From the IMG/VR virus record IMGVR_UViG_3300003319_000115, positions 1-53,730 of that record: a stretch of 53,730 nt of DNA. The stretch is one strand, 5' to 3'. The stretch is from a virus. Both the position numbers and the translations under genes were made by a program. Below are positions 1,906-50,243 of the stretch, in pieces. Under the pieces are notes generated by a model that saw only the letters and a program-made list of their open reading frames with translations, did not search any database and had not been told where the DNA came from. The number at the start of each line of letters is the position of its first letter. Position 1 is the stretch's first letter.

Positions 1906-3049
1906 CTGGCTAGAGAGTTTTATAACGTGGTCAATGCCGAGAAGTGAAGCACCTTCGACCTTCATCCTCTGGACGGGATTATTCACGTTATCCTCCGCAC
2001 TTAGACGTAGAGTACAAGTTCCCAAAACACTTCTTGGCGGTTGGGCTGCACCACCAAATTTATACGTTATCTTTGTAGCACCACCCGGTAAAGCACGTAA
2101 GTCTACAACTGCCGGTTATGCAGATGACTTACTTGACGATGTGCCGGGGATTACACGTTCCTCCACTAGCACCAGTCAAGCCGCTTTAATGAAAAAGATT
2201 GCAGACACGGATGATAGCTCTATTTCCATCCTCTCGTCCGAGTTTGCAACCTTTATCCTTAAATCCGGCCTTGATATGTTCGACTTCCTAACCGATATCT
2301 ACGATGGCAAAAAATCTATTACAAACGAAACCATCGGACGTGGATTTGAGTTCGCGAATAAACCCTGCATTAATATGCTCGCTGCAACAACTCCTGAATG
2401 GATTGCAACAGGAATGCCAGAGAGCGTTATTGGAGGAGGGTTTGCGTCGAGAGTCATCTTCATCTATGAAGATAAGGTCCGCAGACGGCAACTTATTTAT
2501 AAGAATCTCGATTATACCGGAATTAACAGACTTCACGATGATCTTAAATCGGACTTGATTCACATTGCAACGAACATTGCAGGGGATTTTGCGTTCGATA
2601 ACGTATTAACAGAACAATGGATTAACAATTGGTACGTAGAAAACGCTGACAAACTACCGCCTGAACAGTACAAACTCCACGGTTATTACGAACGAAAGCC
2701 CGCTCATATCTTAAAAGTAGCCCAGCTTCTACATGTTGCTTATTCAGATGAACTTGTTCTTACTCAAAAAGATTTAGAAAACGCCATTACAATACTAGAA
2801 CAAGTCGAAAAGAATCTACCAAAAGCATTTAACATGATTGGTAAAAATCGTTACACTGTAGACATGAGACGTATTCTTGAATACATTCAAGAAAAGAAAA
2901 AGGTTGGACGTCGAGAACTGCTTAGTAATTTCTACCAAGCAGCGACACCCAACCTTTTAAACGAACTAGTTGCGGGCTTAATTCAAATGGGAGCAGTAGT
3001 TAGTGAATATAACCGAGAGGAAGAAGAAGCCTATTACATAGCAGTATAA
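1880..3049 (+). CDS. DUF3987-like P-loop protein (putative phage replication ATPase)
   Basis: 389 residues. Residues about 62-75 read VIFVAPPGKARKSTT, a Walker A-like loop in the arrangement seen in DUF3987/YfjI-type proteins. A segment FATFILKSGLDMFDFLTDIYDG and a later MLAATTPEWI, then a GGGFASR arginine-finger-like stretch, also match that family's layout of sensing and finger elements. The C-terminal 100 residues are helical and could be a winged-helix DNA-binding part. These proteins are usually linked to phage or mobile-element replication as helicase/primase-associated ATPases; that role is inferred. It is the last plus-strand gene, and only 2 bases separate its stop from the stop of the converging late block. 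Confidence 0.7.
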   Translation: MAYQRKCPNWLESFITWSMPRSEAPSTFILWTGLFTLSSALRRRVQVPKTLLGGWAAPPNLYVIFVAPPGKARKSTTAGYADDLLDDVPGITRSSTSTSQAALMKKIADTDDSSISILSSEFATFILKSGLDMFDFLTDIYDGKKSITNETIGRGFEFANKPCINMLAATTPEWIATGMPESVIGGGFASRVIFIYEDKVRRRQLIYKNLDYTGINRLHDDLKSDLIHIATNIAGDFAFDNVLTEQWINNWYVENADKLPPEQYKLHGYYERKPAHILKVAQLLHVAYSDELVLTQKDLENAITILEQVEKNLPKAFNMIGKNRYTVDMRRILEYIQEKKKVGRRELLSNFYQAATPNLLNELVAGLIQMGAVVSEYNREEEEAYYIAV

Positions 3050-3051
3050 CT

Positions 3052-6000
3052 CTACTTCCTCTTAGGTGTGTTACCAGTCCATTGATCCACCACACTAGCT
3101 GGACCTCTCTCATAACCTAAACCTAATCCAATACCTGTATTAACTTCCTCAAGTTTTAACTTATAATACTCTCCACTATCATCAATGGTGGGAACGCTAA
3201 TCGTGTAGCCTTCGCGCACGATTTCGTCCCACCAATTTTTATTTTGTTCATCTACGCGCGCACCTAAAGCTTGGCCCGCTACTTGATATCCCAAGTAACC
3301 ATTTTGCCACATTTCAAAAGCCCGCCACCAACCACTAACTGCGGAGTAGCCGGGAACCATTAAGGTCGCGTTGCGTAACAAGTTCTTCCTACCTGCCGTA
3401 GCAATAAACTCATTATCGTTTGTTGCGTCTCTAGCATTCTGATATGCAGTTACGAGAGGACCACCACCAAACAAGAGTGAGTTTGGTGTAGTCATCCAAC
3501 CGGATAAGTTAAATCCAGTAACAGCGTCGGCAGCGCGTAGAGCGATTTGAACTTCTGAAAACCTACGCATTCTTCCTACACGTTCTCCTAAATCCCCCAA
3601 CGTTGCTAACTTTCCTACAAATCTACTTTGCCACGCTGTCCATTGACCAAACTGACCAAACACTTTACCAGCTAACTTATCCCAACCTAAGGGATGGTTC
3701 ATGGCCCCATACACAAATCCTGTTTGTGCCCCATTAACACGCGCTAAGAACTTAGCGGCGTCTTGATATTGTTGCTTAGTGATAAGCCGGTCGAACTCTA
3801 GTTGAACGGAAGGATCGAAGGCGCTTAGACCAATCTTTTTATACACTTGCGCTTTATTCTCACTCCCATTCACTAATCCCTTCAACGCTTCCGCCGTGTT
3901 CGTAAACGATTCTAGGAACGCCGCCGAATGAAAGTTGTCATAAGCAGTTTTCTGCATCGAACCCGTAAACATGACATTCATGTAACCTTCCATGAGGCCA
4001 CGCCCAAACTCACGAACAACTCCGGGTTGTTCACCGGGAACGGAGAATTCAATAGGACTGAATTCACCAAATTGACCGGATTTCTTAAAGGCTTCCCGGA
4101 GTTCCCTCATTTCTCCGGTAGGTGCTAGGTACTTCAACAACCTTCTCGTTCTCTCCAATCCATGTAATGCATAATAGTTACCAATCATTCCTACAAAGTC
4201 ACGCGCACCTGCAACTGGACGTAAACCCTGTGCAGAAGCTTCAGCAATACCAATGTAGCGATTGAAGGTTTTACTGAACAGTTCAGCAACGTCTTTGGGA
4301 CTACGCTGGATACCTAACGTTTTTAAGAACTCCGAAGTATGCTCTGCCGTAGCATCAGCAATACGCTTACTACGGCCCGCCATACCTTCTAAGTAATCTA
4401 CCATCCTTGTCTCGATCTGTTGTGCATTCTTAGGTGCAGTAAGAGCAATACGTTTTACTTCTGCACTTATAGCATTCTTAGCATTGTTCCATGCTTCATT
4501 AAAGCCAAGCTCCTTTTTAATCGCACCAGTAGCATAACGAACTAACAGAGACATTGGATCTCTGTCAAGCATGTCGTTATTTAGCTCACCAGTGCGTATG
4601 AGTTCGCTAACAAACTCGTCAGGGCGACGCGACTTTAAAATATCTTCCTCAATAATAGCATCAGGGAATTGTCTATAGTGAGGAATGTACACTCTGATAA
4701 TGCGATCTTCTGCAATACCAGTAAGTTTGCTCAAGTCTCTAAAGTGGTCATCAAGCATCCGTGCAGCAACAGTAAATCTACCTTTAAGGTGTTCGGGAAC
4801 ACGTTGCTTAAGAAACTCATCTCGCGTAAGCCCAAACTTAGGGTCAAGTGCTTGTGCATAACGAGTAATAGCTAATAGAGAACTAGTATTCATATTACTA
4901 GCTGTTACTCGTTGAAACATTTCAAATGCTTTCATATGTAAGTCGTCCATTTGCATTTGATCTTTATGGACAGACATTACAGCTTGGAAAGCTTCAGGTT
5001 CTAATCCACGCTTCTCAGCATTGATATAAGCACGACGATACTTGAATACTTTATCAAGATCCACCTTGTTATCATACAACCATTGACCATCAGTAACTTC
5101 CTGTTTGGTCATTGAGCGGTGGAGGAGAGACGAGCGAACCTCGTTAGCACTAAGGGTTTCGGTGTAATCAAGTAAAAGTGCCCGCTCAGCACTAGTCATT
5201 CCCTTTAATACGTTGTCTAAGGGAAGGAACTTAACTTTCAGAGGTGTTACCTTACTAACATATTGTCTATGCAATACTTGTAAGCTATCGAATACTCTTG
5301 CGTAAAGACTTGTACGATACGTGTTATCAATAGATTTAAAATAATCGCCTCTAGCTGTTAACCAGGGTAAGCGAATATTGAGATAGTCAGCAATACCACC
5401 CAAGAACTTACTACCATAATTCGCTTCAAAGGGTTGCTCATACGCTTTAGGATACCTAACAGGCATACTCGGAGGTAACACAACTCCATCAGGAACAGGA
5501 GAATCAACAAGATCAATATTCTTCTCTTGTCCTGATTTATTAACAAACGCTAATGCTTCTTCACCGTTGCTGAACTTTTCCAGTACCTTCCCATCTTGTA
5601 CTCTCCTTAATATCACACCCCCACCCGGAACCATGTCGAAGTACATATTGTTCGTAATGGTAGCTACACTAAGTCTAGACGCAACCTCAGTATTAGCATC
5701 AATGTGACGTTGACGCTCCTCTAAGAGTCGGTCTATAGTAGCTTTGAGAACTGCGTGTTCTTCGTCGGGCAGTAGCTTTTCGAGACGTTTATTAAATCTA
5801 CTAACAAACTCATTTCTTAACGCAGGTATATCAGCTTGTGTGAATCCCTTTTCCTGCACAAAGGACTCAAACAAGTTATTGAAATTTATGCTAGCTGAAC
5901 CCCTTAACTTATCATACGCTTCTGCTAGCTGAGAAATCGTATGATAGAACTCAGCAAAGTATTGATTCAAAACTCTATCATACTTATCTTGAAGCTTGTT

Positions 6001-29257: not shown

Positions 29258-30009
29258 ATTTAATCCTAGTTATCAGTCAACGTAACTTCCCCTAAGTGTA
29301 ATATAGTTAACAGCTCAACCTAAGGCTACCCTTACCTTAAGTTATTTCCCCATGTATTTAACGAAGGGTCCTAGTTTTGCTAGAGCACAAAATGAGCTAT
29401 ATTTATCCGTCGTTACTCCCTTTAGTAACTCACTCTTAAATAACTCACTCTAAAAATGCCGCACGTTTTGTGGGAGAGTCATAATTTAACCTTTTACTTA
29501 TGAATTTCCCCCCACCCCCCTAAGTGCTATAGTGAATCGCTAAAGGACTTTGTTCGTTGTCCTTGACTAGCACCGAGTCGTGGTGTGTTCGCTGCGCTCA
29601 CTCGATGAGATTTATAAAGGTGTGCTCGCTTACGCTCGCTTTTTGCCAAAGCGCCAACAGCATGGTACGCTCACTTCGTTCGCTTTTGTTGGATTAAAGG
29701 ATTGGCTACGCGTTAACTGCATGACAGTTGCATAAAGGCTATTACTCGCTAATACCGTTCAGCAACAATGTTAACGGCCTGCGGCCCGCTTTAGTATAGT
29801 CATATTGCTAGTCTCTAGTGATACTAGATAAATGTGCTGCTGCTAACGCGGTAGCTCACGCGGGCATGTCGCACGCACGCAACAACGTTAGGCGTTAGGC
29901 GTTGTCGTTAGGCTACAGTTTGTAACGATTAGGTAACGATGCGTTGGCACAGAGTATGCCTTAGTGAAAGGTAGTTATCTTCCCTACTCACTCTTTCACT
30001 GAGGTTGCT
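29258..30009. promoter_or_regulatory. Divergent 752-base noncoding region between late and early blocks
   Basis: No gene is supported on either strand here. The region should hold the leftward late promoter and the rightward early promoter, but no promoter of the conserved type found elsewhere was seen. It contains C-runs (29509-29520), several GCTCGCT/TTCGCTGCGCTCAC inverted motifs (29585-29690), a CTAGT/ACTAG hairpin near 29815-29835 and a GTTAGGC tandem repeat. It is a candidate origin or control region. Confidence 0.5.
29887..29913. repeat. GTTAGGC tandem repeat
   Basis: GTTAGGC is present at 29887-29893, 29894-29900 and 29907-29913, with a degenerate GTTGTC between the second and third copies. 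Two GTAACGAT copies follow within 30 bases. Such short iterons close to the start of the early block could bind a replication or regulatory protein. Confidence 0.55.
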
Positions 30010-30579
30010 ATGACGAACTGGATCGCAATCGTGATGTACATGCTTCGTGAACTCGCGCGCAACTCTGTTGTGCGTGACTTCGCCACGTTCACGCAGCGTG
30101 ACGCTATGCAGCGTGCGGACTGTGCTCGGTTGATGGTTGATTCCGAGGTGTCGCGTTTCCTCTCTGAGTTTAACGCCCGCTTTGGTAACGACCACCGCGC
30201 AATCGCTGTACACCTTCTCGCCCAGGCAACCAAGGAACAGATTCGCGAGATCGGTACGACTCCGCTGCCTCTTGGCTACACGCTGGTAACCAAGAAGAAG
30301 CGTGCTCGGCGCACACCTAAGCCTCTCACGCTCAAGAACGCTGGCCCGCGCAAGCTGAGCGCATTCGAACGTTATCATGCTGACCGCACGTTGTTCCGTG
30401 ACGAGACGGAAGTTGATTCCCAGACATTTCGCCCAGGCTATGACGGTGAGGGGGCCGTTAACGCGCGTACCGGGCGTTGTGCAGGAAGCTGGGGTAAGCC
30501 TGCTAAGGTGCGTTCGCCATTCCGAGTTATTGTCAAGTACGTGAACGGGGTTGCTTGCGTCGGATTGCCGACTAAGTAA
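30010..30579 (+). CDS. First early gene, basic hypothetical protein
   Basis: 189 residues, the first gene rightward from the divergent region. N-terminal half helical (MLRELARNSVVRDFATFTQRDAMQRADCARL), then a very basic stretch TKKKRARRTPKPLTLK, then a Gly/Arg-rich end. Codon use is visibly GC-richer than that of the later early genes. A nucleic-acid-binding role is plausible; the family is not recognised. A strong terminator follows. Confidence 0.65.
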   Translation: MTNWIAIVMYMLRELARNSVVRDFATFTQRDAMQRADCARLMVDSEVSRFLSEFNARFGNDHRAIAVHLLAQATKEQIREIGTTPLPLGYTLVTKKKRARRTPKPLTLKNAGPRKLSAFERYHADRTLFRDETEVDSQTFRPGYDGEGAVNARTGRCAGSWGKPAKVRSPFRVIVKYVNGVACVGLPTK

Positions 30580-33958: not shown

Positions 33959-34360
33959 ATGCTTCTCGTTAAGGACACCATTAAGGGAAAGAATGTTGCC
34001 GCCGAGGGAGAGATTCCTGAGCAGGAAATCGAAGTTGAGATTCTTCAGTGTGAGAATCTTGAAGAGTGCATTCAGGATGCTGGTAGCGAGAATAACCTTC
34101 GTGATGCGTACAACGATCACAAGCGTAATCGTGCGCTGACTGCTGGACGTAATCAGTATCGTAACGCTCCGAAGGGAACGATTGTCAGTGAGCTTATCGA
34201 AAAGGTTAAGAACACTGTCAAGAACTTCTCGCTCTCTGAGTCTGAGCGTGGAATGGGCGTTAAGAAGAAGGCTGAGAAGGTTGATATGCTCAAGGCCGCA
34301 CTTGAGGCTGGTAAGGAGTTTTCGCGTGAGGAACTGCTTGCGATGCTGGCGAGTCGTTAA
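33959..34360 (+). CDS. Early charged protein in its own transcription unit
   Basis: 133 residues with its own promoter (33863) and a strong terminator (34379). GAGG precedes the ATG by 8 bases. N-terminal beta (MLLVKDTIKGKNVAAEG), then helices including SELIEKVKNTVKNF, a KKKAEKVDMLKAALEAGKEF segment and SREELLAMLASR. The isolated unit and codon use with many preferred codons suggest abundant expression. The family is not recognised; a DNA-binding role is possible. Confidence 0.65.
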   Translation: MLLVKDTIKGKNVAAEGEIPEQEIEVEILQCENLEECIQDAGSENNLRDAYNDHKRNRALTAGRNQYRNAPKGTIVSELIEKVKNTVKNFSLSESERGMGVKKKAEKVDMLKAALEAGKEFSREELLAMLASR

Positions 34361-34378
34361 GGTTAGTTAGAGTAAGTT

Positions 34379-34441
34379 AAGGGTACTAAGTGATTGAGGT
34401 TTATTTAGCTCACTCACTTAGTACCCTTAATTTGCTTTTAA
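34379..34441 (+). terminator. Strong terminator after the 34.0 kb gene
   Basis: AAGGGTACTAAGTGA (34379-34393) pairs perfectly with TCACTTAGTACCCTT (34414-34428), 15 bp, with further TGAG/CTCA pairing toward the loop. T-rich sequence follows (AATTTGCTTTT). Confidence 0.85.
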
Positions 34442-38933: not shown

Positions 38934-39063
38934 TTAGTTAGGAACTTATCTCGCCATTGTTTAGTGGGTTGGCTACTCACAACAATGGGATAAGTTAGCC
39001 TAGCCAGCTAACGAGTGCGAGCCTGAACTCGCCGAGATAAGTTTCTCTTATAGGATATAACTC

Positions 39064-39635: not shown

Positions 39636-39661
39636 GATTAAGTTACTACGGGGATTAAATG

Positions 39662-39696
39662 ATACGAAAGTATCATACTAGTCCATACTTTCGTAT
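39662..39696. repeat. 12-bp perfect inverted repeat
   Basis: ATACGAAAGTAT (39662-39673) and ATACTTTCGTAT (39685-39696) with an 11-base spacer. The first arm itself is a GATAC-GAAA-GTATC mini-hairpin. It lies in a gene-free stretch; possible operator or hairpin. Confidence 0.7.
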
Positions 39697-39773
39697 ACAT
39701 TACCCTCTCACCTCAATAAAGTAACAAACACTCAATCAAAACTTAACTATGACCCACACAATAACGATTAAGT

Positions 39774-40089
39774 GGTGGACTAGCGATGGTTCTAAGAGCC
39801 CGTTTTAACGGAACCAAGTTTTTAGCGAGAAAATCACCGTAAGCGCTGCGCACGCCATGAATAAGAGTTAAGTGAGATTCTAACAGTACAAACTCACTTA
39901 ACTTCGTGTCTTTTGTATGGTTCCTAGGGCATTGTAAAAAGACGCCTGTAGAGTATCTGGTATCTGTGCTGGACTCTACAGTTGCACACAGATCGTCAGT
40001 AATGCTCACGTCTGATGAACCTAACAAAACGTGAGAAGGGGACGGTTAGGATTTAGGTAGGCCACCTTAACCTAGCCGTCCCTTTTTTT
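39774..40089 (+). ncRNA. Structured noncoding RNA candidate ending in a terminator
   Basis: Gene-free stretch with five independent perfect stems: GGTTC/GAACC (39788/39811), GTTAAGTGAG/CTCACTTAAC (39867/39893; 10 bp), CTGTAGAGT/ACTCTACAG (39946/39973; 9 bp), CTCACGT/ACGTGAG (40005/40029; 7 bp) and the terminator stem (40039-40082). The weak closing pair GGTGG/TCACC brackets the first hairpin. Minus-strand frame across it has no protein-like pattern. The terminator shows that the RNA ends here on the plus strand. Confidence 0.7.
40039..40089 (+). terminator. Rho-independent terminator
   Basis: GGGACGGTTAGG (40039-40050) pairs with CCTAGCCGTCCC (40071-40082), 12 pairs including one G-U, immediately followed by seven T (40083-40089). 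Textbook intrinsic terminator on the plus strand, upstream of the dpdA-like gene. Confidence 0.92.
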
Positions 40090-40253: not shown

Positions 40254-40949
40254 ATGCAATTCTATATCGGCTTACATGTTCCGGGCCATTGTTCACAGTT
40301 CTCTCACTCAATGGTAAGCGTCAACAGACTTCGTTACCTCGTTAAACACTTTACCCCAAACAAGTGGATTCTCGATAGTGGGGCATTTACAGAAATCAGC
40401 AAGTATGGAGAATACCGGCACAGCGTTGCCACTTACGCTAAAACCATAGAGAAGTGGAGAAGGAGCGGAACTCTACATGCCGTTGTGTCACAAGACTATA
40501 TGTGTGAACCCTTCATATTGAAGCGTTGGGGAACTACAGTTAGGGAGCATCAAGTTAAAACAGTATTACGTTACCTTGAATTACAATCACTCACCACCGT
40601 TTACATAATGCCCGTCCTACAAGGTTATACTACTTATGAATACCTTGAACACATCGAAATGTATATTGATTATATCTCACCTTCCCAGTGGATCGGAGTA
40701 GGTTCTGTGTGTAAGCGCAATACGAGTGACCCACAAGAAGTGTATAGGATACTTAGTGCTATTAAGAATCGCTTACCCGATATTAAACTCCATGGCTTTG
40801 GCTTGAAAGCTAATACTCTCAAAGACCCTAACATTTACTCACTTCTCCACTCCGCCGACTCAATGGCTTGGTCATTAAACGCAAAGCTTCAAGGCCGTGA
40901 CCCCAATGATATTAATGAAGCACTTAGATTCTGGCGCGAACTCAGTTAG
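40254..40949 (+). CDS. dpdA: DpdA-like 7-deazaguanine DNA transglycosylase
   Basis: 231 residues. Conserved blocks of the DpdA/TGT-like family: WILDSGAFTEISKYGEY (about 39-55), VSQDYMCEP (catalytic-type Asp), YIMPVLQGYTTYEYLEH, WIGVGSVCKRN, IKLHGFGLKANTL and SADSMAWS. DpdA enzymes exchange guanine in phage DNA for a 7-deazaguanine such as dPreQ0 or an archaeosine-like base, which protects DNA from nucleases. No queC, queD, queE or folE gene is seen in this window, so the base would have to come from the host or from unrecognised genes. Short version of the family (231 residues versus about 400 in some phages). Confidence 0.85.
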   Translation: MQFYIGLHVPGHCSQFSHSMVSVNRLRYLVKHFTPNKWILDSGAFTEISKYGEYRHSVATYAKTIEKWRRSGTLHAVVSQDYMCEPFILKRWGTTVREHQVKTVLRYLELQSLTTVYIMPVLQGYTTYEYLEHIEMYIDYISPSQWIGVGSVCKRNTSDPQEVYRILSAIKNRLPDIKLHGFGLKANTLKDPNIYSLLHSADSMAWSLNAKLQGRDPNDINEALRFWRELS

Positions 40950-46941: not shown

Positions 46942-47397
46942 ATGCAATTCACTTTCGATCCCACTCAGGTTTCCGCTGGTATCAAGATTTTCGACAAGGG
47001 CACCTACGAGTTTGCTATCGGTCAGCCCAAGCCGTTCTTCAAGGATGCACAGAACGATAAGAGTGAGAACTTTGGTGTCCGTTATGTTCTCACTGATCGC
47101 GCTAGTGGTGATAAGTACATTCAGACGTGTTACATGCACAATCAGGGTGGACAGTCGTTCTCCAAGGGTTTCATGATGGCAGCGTATGGTTTCGCTCGCA
47201 ATCAGGAGAACGAGTTTAACGCTTTCTGCCGTAAGGAGTTCACGGAGAAGGATTATGCCTTCTCTCACGAGGACAACTCGGCTGGGCGTTATTGGACCGA
47301 AGTTGCGGGCAAGAACATTGTTGCTGACATGGACGTGCAGTTTGATGCCAAGTCCGGTAATCAGCAACAGAAGGTTCAGTTCAGACCGATTGAGTAA
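46942..47397 (+). CDS. DUF669-like single-strand DNA-binding protein
   Basis: 151 residues; DPTQVSAGIKIFDKGTYEFAIGQPKPFF at the N-terminus is typical of the DUF669/ssDNA-binding partners of Sak4-type recombinases, followed by an OB-fold-like body and a C-terminal QQQKVQFRPIE. Likely coats ssDNA during recombination or replication. Leader lacks a Shine-Dalgarno (CTAAAACTAAAATG). Confidence 0.65.
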   Translation: MQFTFDPTQVSAGIKIFDKGTYEFAIGQPKPFFKDAQNDKSENFGVRYVLTDRASGDKYIQTCYMHNQGGQSFSKGFMMAAYGFARNQENEFNAFCRKEFTEKDYAFSHEDNSAGRYWTEVAGKNIVADMDVQFDAKSGNQQQKVQFRPIE

Positions 47398-47402
47398 TTA
47401 AT

Positions 47403-47481
47403 AGGGAATGGTCCCGGTGAGTAGTAACAGACAACAGCCCTGTTAGGGTTTAAAAGGCGAACCAATACAATAGCCTTCCCT
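47403..47481 (+). ncRNA. Small multibranched RNA-like element
   Basis: AGGGAA (47403-47408) closes with TTCCCT (47476-47481); inside are AACAG/CTGTT (47433-47444) and AAGGC/GCCTT (47454/47473). No gene is present. It shares the 'closed junction' architecture of the array further downstream. Confidence 0.45.
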
Positions 47482-47515
47482 GTAAAACGAAATCCGGGCG
47501 CCCACCCAATTACTT

Positions 47516-47701
47516 ATGTTCAGGATTCAAGTTAATAAAAAGTATGAGAAGGGTGATCGTATTAGGCTTATAGCTCACACTCCGAATAAATCAAGTCCCA
47601 CCCTCTTATGGGGCTTAGTGATGATCTATAAGCATCCATATATTTGGGTTCGTACAAACTCTAATATACCCGCGAACAGTAGAGTAACAGTTCGTGATTA
47701 A
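47516..47701 (+). CDS. Small hypothetical protein
   Basis: 61 residues, basic beta (IQVNKKYEKGDRIRLIAHTP). Overlaps the next gene by 8 bases. Possible small beta-barrel; family unknown. Confidence 0.5.
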   Translation: MFRIQVNKKYEKGDRIRLIAHTPNKSSPTLLWGLVMIYKHPYIWVRTNSNIPANSRVTVRD

Positions 47702-47948
47702 TCATTGGCAGATTCATACAGCAGATAATAGATACTACGTCAGCTTTGAAGTTGCTGTAATGGTATTAGCTAGTTGGAAAGCTGACGAAGGTATTATTGA
47801 GTTCAGCAATTTAGCTGATACTACTATTGCACTCAATACTTGTGACATTGAATGCATCTTCGAAGTTACTGAGGAATCAGTAAGATTCGAAGCAAAGATG
47901 AAGAAAGATATTATTGCTATTCAAGACGAAGTAGAACATTACAGTTGA
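47694..47948 (+). CDS. Hypothetical 84-residue protein
   Basis: GTG start at 47694 overlapping the previous stop. Mixed alpha/beta. The stop is 6 bases before the structured RNA region. Not recognised. Confidence 0.5.
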   Translation: MINHWQIHTADNRYYVSFEVAVMVLASWKADEGIIEFSNLADTTIALNTCDIECIFEVTEESVRFEAKMKKDIIAIQDEVEHYS

Positions 47949-47954
47949 GTTCTA

Positions 47955-48027
47955 GGTTGGTGCGTGGAGTTATAACGAGATAACAGAAGCGCATCAACCG
48001 GAGTGTTTAGTGTTAGTTAAACACTCC
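47955..48027 (+). ncRNA. 5' structured modules preceding tRNA-Lys
   Basis: GGTTGGTGCG (47955-47964) pairs with CGCATCAACC (47990-47999), ten pairs with one G-U, enclosing GTTAT/ATAAC. Directly after it GGAGTGTTTA (48000-48009) pairs with TAAACACTCC (48018-48027), 10 bp with an 8-base loop. These adjoin tRNA-Lys with 5 bases between, so they are likely part of the same RNA precursor. Confidence 0.7.
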
Positions 48028-48032
48028 AAAAA

Positions 48033-48106
48033 ACCCCGATAGCTCAGTCGGTTAGAGCAACTGACTTTTAATCAGTAGGTCGTGGGTTCGATTCCCACTC
48101 GGGGTA
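48033..48106 (+). tRNA. tRNA-Lys (anticodon TTT)
   Basis: Complete cloverleaf of 74 bases: acceptor ACCCCGA/TCGGGGT with A discriminator, D-arm AGCTCAG...GAGC, anticodon loop CTTTTAA, T-arm GTGGGTTCGATTCCCAC. No encoded CCA. Reads Lys AAA/AAG. Confidence 0.95.
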
Positions 48107-48779
48107 TTTGATGGGGTAGCACACAGCGAACGTCTGACTAACTAGTAGCTGTGTGGAAACGTAGTCTTGTCAACTACGGGTGAAGGAAACGTCTCATAAA
48201 CGTAACCCTTCCTACCCACACTTTTTGGTTAGTTATACTCAGTTAGCGTATCAAGAGGGTATTGGCCCGCATAATCCAATGTAAGTTACCAGGCCGTTAG
48301 CTATAACTAACCATTAACTTAAGTGTGTAATCGAGATGGCGCACAGTAGGTTACTACGAGCACCCTCGTTGCGCGACCTCCGTATGGCGTCGTAAGGGTT
48401 AGTTAACGTTAACGACGTACCTCTAACTACCCTCCCTTCTCTTACACACTAGTTAAGCGTCTACCCTTATGTAATGTTGGGGAACTAGGCTAACATCTAG
48501 TGAAAATTAGCCCGCTTAACTTTAATTTCGTTCCCATTCGACTAGCGGTAAGTCGCCCCGTAAATAGCGTAGTGCTGCGACCACGTTCGGGCTTAATAGG
48601 TGCTGATCCTGCGCGCGGGACAGCAAATACCTATATGAGTACATATCCGTGGTGAGGGAAACGCCGTTTTCGATAGCGGCATGGGAATTTGGTGATGTGT
48701 CAGTAGCATAACGCGAGATAGTGTGGCCTAAGCCTAACGGCAGATGGGTAGAATCCCACTCTGACTATCACCAAAATAA
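48107..48779 (+). ncRNA. Array of six closed, branched RNA modules between tRNA-Lys and tRNA-Gln
   Basis: 673 gene-free bases between two intact tRNAs. Closing stems: module 1 GGGTAG/CTACCC (48114/48212) holding CACACAGC/GCTGTGTG, CGTAGT/ACTACG and GAAGG/CCTTC; module 2 GGTTAGTTATA/TATAACTAACC (48227/48302; 11 bp); module 3 AGTGTGTAA/TTACACACT (48322/48442; 9 bp) with ACGAG/CTCGT and CGTCGT/ACGACG inside; module 4 AGTTAAGCG/CGCTTAACT (48451/48513; 9 bp) with GGCTAA/TTAGCC; module 5 TTCCCAT/ATGGGAA (48531/48681; 7 bp) with CGACT/AGTCG and TAGGTGCTG/CAGC-ACCTA; module 6 GGTGAT + GTCAG/CTGAC + ATCACC (48691/48772). None is a normal tRNA. Best seen as one large ornate phage RNA, of the general kind known as GOLLD or ROOL, but membership is not proved. 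Confidence 0.75.
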
Positions 48780-48851
48780 TCCCCACTCGTATAATGGTCA
48801 TTACACTGGACTTTGGCTCCGGGGATAATGGTTCGATTCCATTGTGGGGTA
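48780..48851 (+). tRNA. tRNA-Gln (anticodon TTG)
   Basis: 72-base cloverleaf: acceptor TCCCCAC/GTGGGGT (first pair is a T-T mismatch), anticodon stem CTGGA/TCCGG with loop CTTTGGC, T-arm AATGGTTCGATTCCATT. No encoded CCA. Reads Gln CAA. Confidence 0.85.
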
Positions 48852-48855
48852 TCTA

Positions 48856-49095
48856 ATGGACTACAATAACTTAATAGCTTGTATCTACTACGATACAAAT
48901 GTCATAGAAATACTTGATCCACAAGAACCTGATATAAGAGTTATAATAGACTTACTCGGACTTGAAAATATACATTATGATAGAAATTACTTATTCAAAC
49001 TAGCCCGAGGCATTTTGAAGTTTGCAAAGGTTCCTCATGTACCATCGCCATTAATGGGAATGAAATATAATAACACTTACATTGATGAACTATGA
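48856..49095 (+). CDS. Hypothetical 79-residue protein
   Basis: ATG at 48856, four bases after the tRNA-Gln 3' end; a longer frame from 48844 would run back into the tRNA. Mixed alpha/beta, overlaps the next gene by 4 bases. The family is not recognised. Confidence 0.55.
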   Translation: MDYNNLIACIYYDTNVIEILDPQEPDIRVIIDLLGLENIHYDRNYLFKLARGILKFAKVPHVPSPLMGMKYNNTYIDEL

Positions 49096-50160: not shown

Positions 50161-50243
50161 GCCACTATGGCGAAATCGGTAAACGCAAGAGACTTAAAAT
50201 CTCTCACCCTTTGGGTTTGTGGGTTCGAGTCCCACTAGTGGCA
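50161..50243 (+). tRNA. tRNA-Leu (anticodon TAA)
   Basis: Class II tRNA of 83 bases: acceptor GCCACTA/TAGTGGC with A discriminator, anticodon stem AGAGA/TCTCT with loop CTTAAAA, long variable arm, T-arm GTGGGTTCGAGTCCCAC. No encoded CCA. Reads Leu TTA/TTG. Confidence 0.92.

What the first reader, a model, noticed from the sequence alone, without database searches (positions are those of the whole stretch)
47955..48779. Array of six or more branched RNA modules between phage tRNAs
Seen directly: after tRNA-Lys, six consecutive segments are each closed by perfect stems (6, 11, 9, 9, 7 and a split 6+5 bp) and contain further perfect hairpins. Two more modules and a 10-bp hairpin lie before tRNA-Lys. 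No gene fits. Chance alone would not give back-to-back closed stems of this length filling a whole gap. Known: giant ornate RNAs such as GOLLD and ROOL occur in phages beside tRNAs, and some assemble into multimeric RNA particles. Inference: this is such an RNA, perhaps a divergent or new class; its modules are not recognisable tRNAs.
Basis: partly seen in the sequence, partly recalled or inferred. Interest (0 to 1): 0.9.

Follow-up and report, generated by a model that had tools for sequence, protein, structure and literature searches.

The report
Row of small RNAs beside phage tRNAs
An uncultured phage carries, packed between two of its tRNA genes, six back-to-back folded RNA units that match no known RNA family; related phages carry the same kind of units in varying number next to their tRNAs, most like the still unexplained small stable RNAs of phage T4.

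Summary
The 673 nt between tRNA-Lys and tRNA-Gln have no convincing gene and no Rfam match. A blind partition into closed blocks recovers the six modules, with energy far beyond shuffles (-210 versus -175, sd 6.5). The phage is an orphan, but a primase alignment found about 25 relatives with the same gene order (exonuclease, Sak4, Ssb-position gene, [slot], GroES, UDG, polymerase, primase). Many relatives have closed branched modules (closing stems 8 to 17 bp), from none to seven, among tRNAs in this slot or after the helicase; their sequences do not match the window's. In one group of four relatives a module next to tRNA-Gln can be aligned and covaries strongly (7 of 24 pairs changed on both sides, 99% of cells paired), on the plus strand. 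So such modules are real RNAs. Module number and order vary, and tRNAs lie between modules. This fits separate small RNAs, like T4 rnaC and rnaD, better than one giant GOLLD- or ROOL-like RNA, which is unproven but not excluded. Covariation could not be tested for the window's own modules. Function is unknown; co-transcription with the tRNAs and excision is inferred. Two further module loci lie at 38943-39043 and 39637-40085.

The parts
48033..48106 (+). tRNA-Lys (TTT)
47954..47999 (+). hairpin module upstream of tRNA-Lys (11 bp outer stem with inner 5-bp stem)
   Evidence: z -6.4
48000..48028 (+). 10-11 bp hairpin before tRNA-Lys
   Evidence: z -5.8
48111..48220 (+). module M1: closing GGGTAG/CTACCC, three inner hairpins (cloverleaf-like)
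48226..48313 (+). module M2: 12 bp closing stem
48322..48450 (+). module M3: 9 bp closing stem, branched inside
48451..48521 (+). module M4: 9 bp closing stem, abuts M3 with no gap; inner ATGTT/AACAT and ACTAG/CTAGT can form an alternative pseudoknot (read by eye)
48528..48688 (+). module M5: 7 bp perfect closing stem, branched inside
48688..48776 (+). module M6: 9 bp closing stem plus inner GTCAG/CTGAC; ends about 3 nt before tRNA-Gln
   Evidence: z -4.2
48780..48851 (+). tRNA-Gln (TTG)
47401..47485 (+). weak module directly after the Ssb-position gene (AGGGAA/TTCCCT); several relatives have a stronger module at this place
   Evidence: z -0.8 only
46942..47397 (+). conserved gene that marks the slot in relatives (called 'ssb151' or Ssb-position gene here; no family match)
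50161..50243 (+). tRNA-Leu (TAA), the third tRNA of the slot
38943..39043 (+). further closed module after the helicase gene: 11 bp closing stem and three inner hairpins
   Evidence: z -6.2
39637..40085 (+). further structured non-coding stretch before dpdA, with nested and interleaved stems (39946-39954/39973-39981 with 39962-39968/39987-39993, a likely H-type pseudoknot)

Best explanation
The gap between tRNA-Lys and tRNA-Gln encodes a row of about six separate small structured RNAs (71-161 nt each), each closed end to end by its own stem. They are the same kind of thing as the small stable RNAs rnaC and rnaD in the tRNA cluster of phage T4. Inferred mechanism: the row is transcribed in the rightward replication operon together with the tRNAs. 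RNase P, RNase Z and host endonucleases acting at the junctions then release compact RNAs with sequestered, exonuclease-resistant ends, which act in trans during infection. A plausible role is to engage or occupy host factors that handle tRNA-like RNA. Shown: the sequence, the folding statistics, the recurrence in relatives and the covariation in one relative group. Inferred: transcription, processing and any trans role. Fast turnover of sequence and module number across the clade suggests lineage-specific, possibly host-conflict-driven RNAs rather than a conserved machine.
For: Blind partition recovers six closed blocks, beyond shuffles. Relatives with the same synteny carry closed branched modules among tRNAs. 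In the core clade the closing-stem density is 1.47 per kb of non-coding DNA near tRNAs, 0.40 per kb farther away, and 0.2-0.5 per kb in control groups away from tRNAs. L185-L188 covariation: 7 of 24 pairs changed on both sides, 99% of cells paired, sliding controls zero. A consensus fold that was not given the structure gives 8 such pairs, and its three one-side changes are wobbles only on the plus strand. T4 rnaC and rnaD are 139 and 119 nt, 6 nt apart and 1 nt from tRNA-Arg; here M3|M4 and M5|M6 abut and M6 ends about 3 nt before tRNA-Gln. T4 rnaC carries a T-arm, as do tRNA-like elements in relatives (L098, L099, L290, L184, L174). Plus-strand promoter and terminator calls in the slot do not exceed chance. 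No Rfam match.
Against: No homologue of the window's own modules was found, so their covariation is untested. No expression data. Some close relatives (L290, L096, L100) have few or no long-stemmed modules. Fold enrichment of long stems over shuffles is also about tenfold in unrelated phages, though sparser. M1 to M5 individually have only moderate z-scores, -2.4 to -2.8. T4 rnaD does not fold better than shuffles, so the parallel rests on location, size and the rnaC T-arm.
Confidence: 0.62

Rival explanations
1. One giant ornate RNA of about 670 nt, a new class that works like GOLLD or ROOL: the six modules are domains of a single molecule that may assemble into a multimer.
For: Size and location fit: ROOL and GOLLD lie near phage tRNA islands, and GOLLD often exceeds 800 nt and may hold tRNAs in its linker (PMC12286853). 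Six domains fill the gap end to end.
Against: No Rfam GOLLD/ROOL/OLE/HEARO match at E up to 5. Relatives have none to about seven modules, in different order, with tRNAs between them and no shared core. 96% of the folding energy is within modules. In L185-L188 a single module stands alone beside tRNA-Gln.
Confidence: 0.15
2. Decayed or strongly diverged tRNA genes: the row is a tRNA array whose members have lost or remodelled their arms.
For: Relatives have tRNA-like elements with acceptor stem and T-arm but abnormal left halves (L098 3905-4003, L099 2977-3076, L290 5060-5147, L184 12344-12435, L174 2041-2129). M1 is cloverleaf-like with a 7-nt middle loop.
Against: In this part of the window the T-loop motif GTTCRANYC occurs only in the three annotated tRNAs. 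Decay would not produce closing stems longer than an acceptor stem, nor covariation.
Confidence: 0.1
3. Cis-acting processing or stability hairpins, or DNA-level elements (recombination sites, mobile inverted repeats), with no RNA function of their own.
For: Inverted repeats alone cannot tell RNA from DNA, and several modules fold as well on the minus strand.
Against: The one-side changes in the covarying module keep pairing only as G-U on the plus strand. Each module has a different closing sequence, so no shared recombination or terminal repeat sequence exists. Branched interiors are more than a spacer needs.
Confidence: 0.1

Closest known systems
Phage T4 rnaC and rnaD (species 1 and 2 RNAs)
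   Same: Small stable RNAs (139 and 119 nt in NC_000866) packed next to each other and to tRNA genes; function unknown (PMC9697503, PMC3014915). rnaC carries a T-arm, as do the tRNA-like elements of the window's relatives.
   Different: T4 has two; here six or more in a row, no sequence similarity, and longer perfect closing stems. Window modules lack the T-arm.
GOLLD RNA
   Same: Large ornate phage RNA near tRNA islands, sometimes with tRNAs inside (PMC12286853).
   Different: No model match; no conserved 3' region shared among relatives; architecture is a variable row of closed units.
ROOL RNA
   Same: Elaborately folded phage RNA near tRNAs (PMC12286853); total length similar (from memory, about 600 nt).
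   Different: No Rfam match; a single fixed architecture in ROOL, variable module number here.
Viral tRNA-like structures
   Same: The elements in relatives keep acceptor stem and T-arm with a remodelled left half.
   Different: Those elements are in relatives, not in the window; they are DNA-phage genes, not RNA-genome 3' ends.

Membership tests
GOLLD / ROOL / OLE / HEARO (Rfam) | match to the family covariance model | tested here: not met
   (E up to 5 on 47380-48900, only tRNA above threshold)
GOLLD / ROOL | fixed overall architecture or conserved core across members | tested here: not met
   module number, order and sequence differ in relatives
GOLLD / ROOL | location in phage genomes near tRNA genes | tested here: met
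GOLLD / ROOL | homo-oligomeric RNA-only cage | not testable with these tools
   needs cryo-EM or native gels
T4 rnaC/rnaD-like phage small stable RNAs | structured non-coding RNA of about 100-150 nt directly adjoining phage tRNA genes | tested here: met
   modules of 71-161 nt; M6 about 3 nt from tRNA-Gln, M1 about 5 nt after tRNA-Lys
T4 rnaC/rnaD-like phage small stable RNAs | stable excised transcript during infection | not testable with these tools
   no expression data
T4 rnaC/rnaD-like phage small stable RNAs | sequence homology to T4 rnaC or rnaD | tested here: not met
   blastn of 48107-48779 against the phage collection gives only short chance matches, none to T4 listed
tRNA (RF00005) | tRNA model match / T-arm in the modules | tested here: not met

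The most novel reading that the evidence does not exclude
A clade of uncultured phages carries an expandable cassette of closed, branched small RNAs and tRNA-like RNAs in its tRNA locus. It turns over as fast as a defence or counter-defence locus and could act as RNA decoys against host tRNA-targeting immunity.
Probability: 0.2. Interest if true: 0.85.

Novelty: new variant of a known kind. Interest (0 to 1): 0.58.

Why it matters
The small stable RNAs of the T4 tRNA cluster still have no known function. A clade in which such RNAs come in variable rows, with covariation to define at least one fold, gives many independent examples to compare. It makes testable whether they serve tRNA processing, host takeover or evasion of tRNA-cleaving defences. 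It also shows that Rfam scans and tRNA finders miss a layer of phage RNA genes.

Tried and rejected
Rfam at gathering and permissive thresholds: nothing but tRNA and sub-threshold chance matches. Blastn of the region against phages: only tRNA parts or chance matches. Single-protein searches with the Ssb-position gene, Sak4 and TerL found no kin. DpdA alignment found 80 loci, none syntenic. TerL alignment too diverged to use. Internal repeats: modules are not copies of each other; GGAAACG occurs three times in M1 and M5 but is not significant window-wide. A pattern scan for the L185-L188 module found only its own group. nhmmer of every module against all loci found no cross-group homologues of the closed modules. 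Integron attC sites, mobile inverted repeats and group I/II introns were considered and dropped (no shared end sequence, no Rfam match). phi29 pRNA was considered from memory and dropped: a single packaging RNA of a different phage type. Sliding 120-nt MFE did not single the region out; the signal is in long-range closure.

Full report
OBSERVATION. ARAGORN and Rfam place tRNA-Lys at 48033-48106, tRNA-Gln at 48780-48851 and tRNA-Leu at 50161-50243, all on the plus strand. No convincing gene lies between the first two: the longest ORF overlapping 47950-48790 is 54 aa. Perfect stems of 9 bp or more number 5 against 0.36 expected from dinucleotide shuffles. To avoid choosing the modules by eye, a dynamic program sought the best set of blocks whose ends pair. 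It returned six blocks, 48113-48220, 48221-48316, 48323-48448, 48449-48526, 48527-48688 and 48689-48778, with total energy -210.1 against -175.3 (sd 6.5) in 16 shuffles. This keeps 96% of the unrestricted minimum energy, against 90% (sd 2, maximum 94) in shuffles. A 120-nt sliding MFE does not single out the region, so the signal is the long-range closure, not overall stability.

RELATIVES. The window is a virus record of 53,730 bases, a tailed phage with TerL, portal, a DpdA-type transglycosylase (Pfam DpdA), Sak4 and a DNA polymerase whose C-terminal part lies at the contig start. Direct searches found no kin. An alignment of the DUF3987-like primase found kin at 41-58% identity, and exonuclease and polymerase alignments added more. 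Gene order is kept: exonuclease, Sak4, Ssb-position gene, slot, GroES, UDG, polymerase, primase. One relative sits in a Blastocatellia MAG (L290), a weak hint to host.

WHAT SITS IN THE SLOT. Relatives carry closed branched modules with their own closing stems: L098 3821-3901 (15 bp), L093 5603-5659 (13), L099 2884-2968 (10), L104 2634-2739 (10) and 2749-2834 (12), L103 4062-4149 (10), 4352-4479 (17) and 4484-4588 (12), L215 2067-2146 (12) and 2154-2354 (13), L220 4081-4236 (14), L184 12440-12554 (11). L184 has a second row after the helicase with five modules, tRNA-Lys and two more (2405-3326); L182 has modules, tRNA-Leu, a module, tRNA-Met. The window likewise has a cloverleaf-like module at 38943-39043 (11 bp, z -6.2) and a structured stretch at 39637-40085 with a likely H-type pseudoknot. 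In the core clade long closing stems occur at 1.47 per kb of non-coding DNA within 600 bp of a tRNA and at 0.40 per kb elsewhere; unrelated or distant phages have 0.2-0.5 per kb away from tRNAs and too little near-tRNA DNA to compare. Fold enrichment over shuffles is similar in all groups, so density near tRNAs and arrangement in rows, not enrichment alone, sets the clade apart.

SELECTION ON STRUCTURE. Four relatives (L185-L188) share one alignable module just before tRNA-Gln. Of 24 pairs, 7 have changes on both sides, 99% of cells pair, and sliding the partners gives none. RNAalifold, not given the structure, finds the same helices with 8 such pairs; its three one-side changes are G-U on the plus strand only. 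The four sequences are about three lineages, so this is strong but narrow. No homologue of the window's own modules was found, so for them selection is inferred by analogy.

ONE RNA OR MANY. Number (none to about seven), order and sequence of modules vary, tRNAs interleave, and a single module can stand alone. This favours separate small RNAs. GOLLD can hold tRNAs in its linker and has a variable 5' part (PMC12286853), so interleaving alone does not exclude a giant RNA; the lack of any shared core does weigh against it.

CLOSEST KNOWN. T4 rnaC (139 nt) and rnaD (119 nt) lie 6 nt apart and 1 nt from tRNA-Arg and have no known function (PMC9697503, PMC3014915). rnaC holds a T-arm, CCGGG TTCGAAT CCCGG. 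Five relatives hold elements of 88-100 nt with a 7-bp acceptor stem and a T-arm but an abnormal left half (L098, L099, L290, L184, L174). ARAGORN missed those checked except for an odd call in L184, and Rfam did not score them above the tRNA gathering threshold where searched. Between L098 and L099 the left stem changes from GAGTAC/GTACTC to GAACAC/GTGTTC, two compensated pairs read by eye. The window modules have no T-loop.

VERDICT. Observation confirmed; interpretation partly supported: structured RNA yes, single giant RNA unproven and less likely. Best reading: a variable row of T4-rnaC/D-like small RNAs. Processing and function are inference.

Noticed in passing
38943-39043 and 39637-40085: Two further structured non-coding stretches in the same phage, one cloverleaf-like with an 11 bp closing stem, one with interleaved stems (likely pseudoknot) before dpdA.
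   Followed up: partly
L098 3905-4003, L099 2977-3076, L290 5060-5147, L184 12344-12435, L174 2041-2129: tRNA-like elements with acceptor stem and T-arm but unusual left halves, four of them soon after the Ssb-position gene (the L174 one lies elsewhere); resemble T4 rnaC.
   Followed up: partly
L220 4240-4730: A tRNA 5' half appears followed by an HNH-like ORF and then a tRNA-Ile, as if a homing endonuclease had inserted beside or into a tRNA gene.
   Followed up: no
29260-30010: Long non-coding stretch between the two arms of the genome with many short repeats such as CTCGCTTACGCTCGCT; possible replication origin or regulatory region.
   Followed up: no
34375-34432: Long, nearly perfect hairpin (AAGGGTACTAAGTGA.../...TCACTTAGTACCCTT) after the gene 33959-34360, probably a terminator.
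   Followed up: no
40254-40949: DpdA-type transglycosylase (Pfam DpdA, 7e-37), suggesting 7-deazaguanine DNA modification.
   Followed up: no
L290: A close polymerase relative (61%) lies on a contig binned as a Blastocatellia MAG, a weak hint to an Acidobacteriota host.
   Followed up: no
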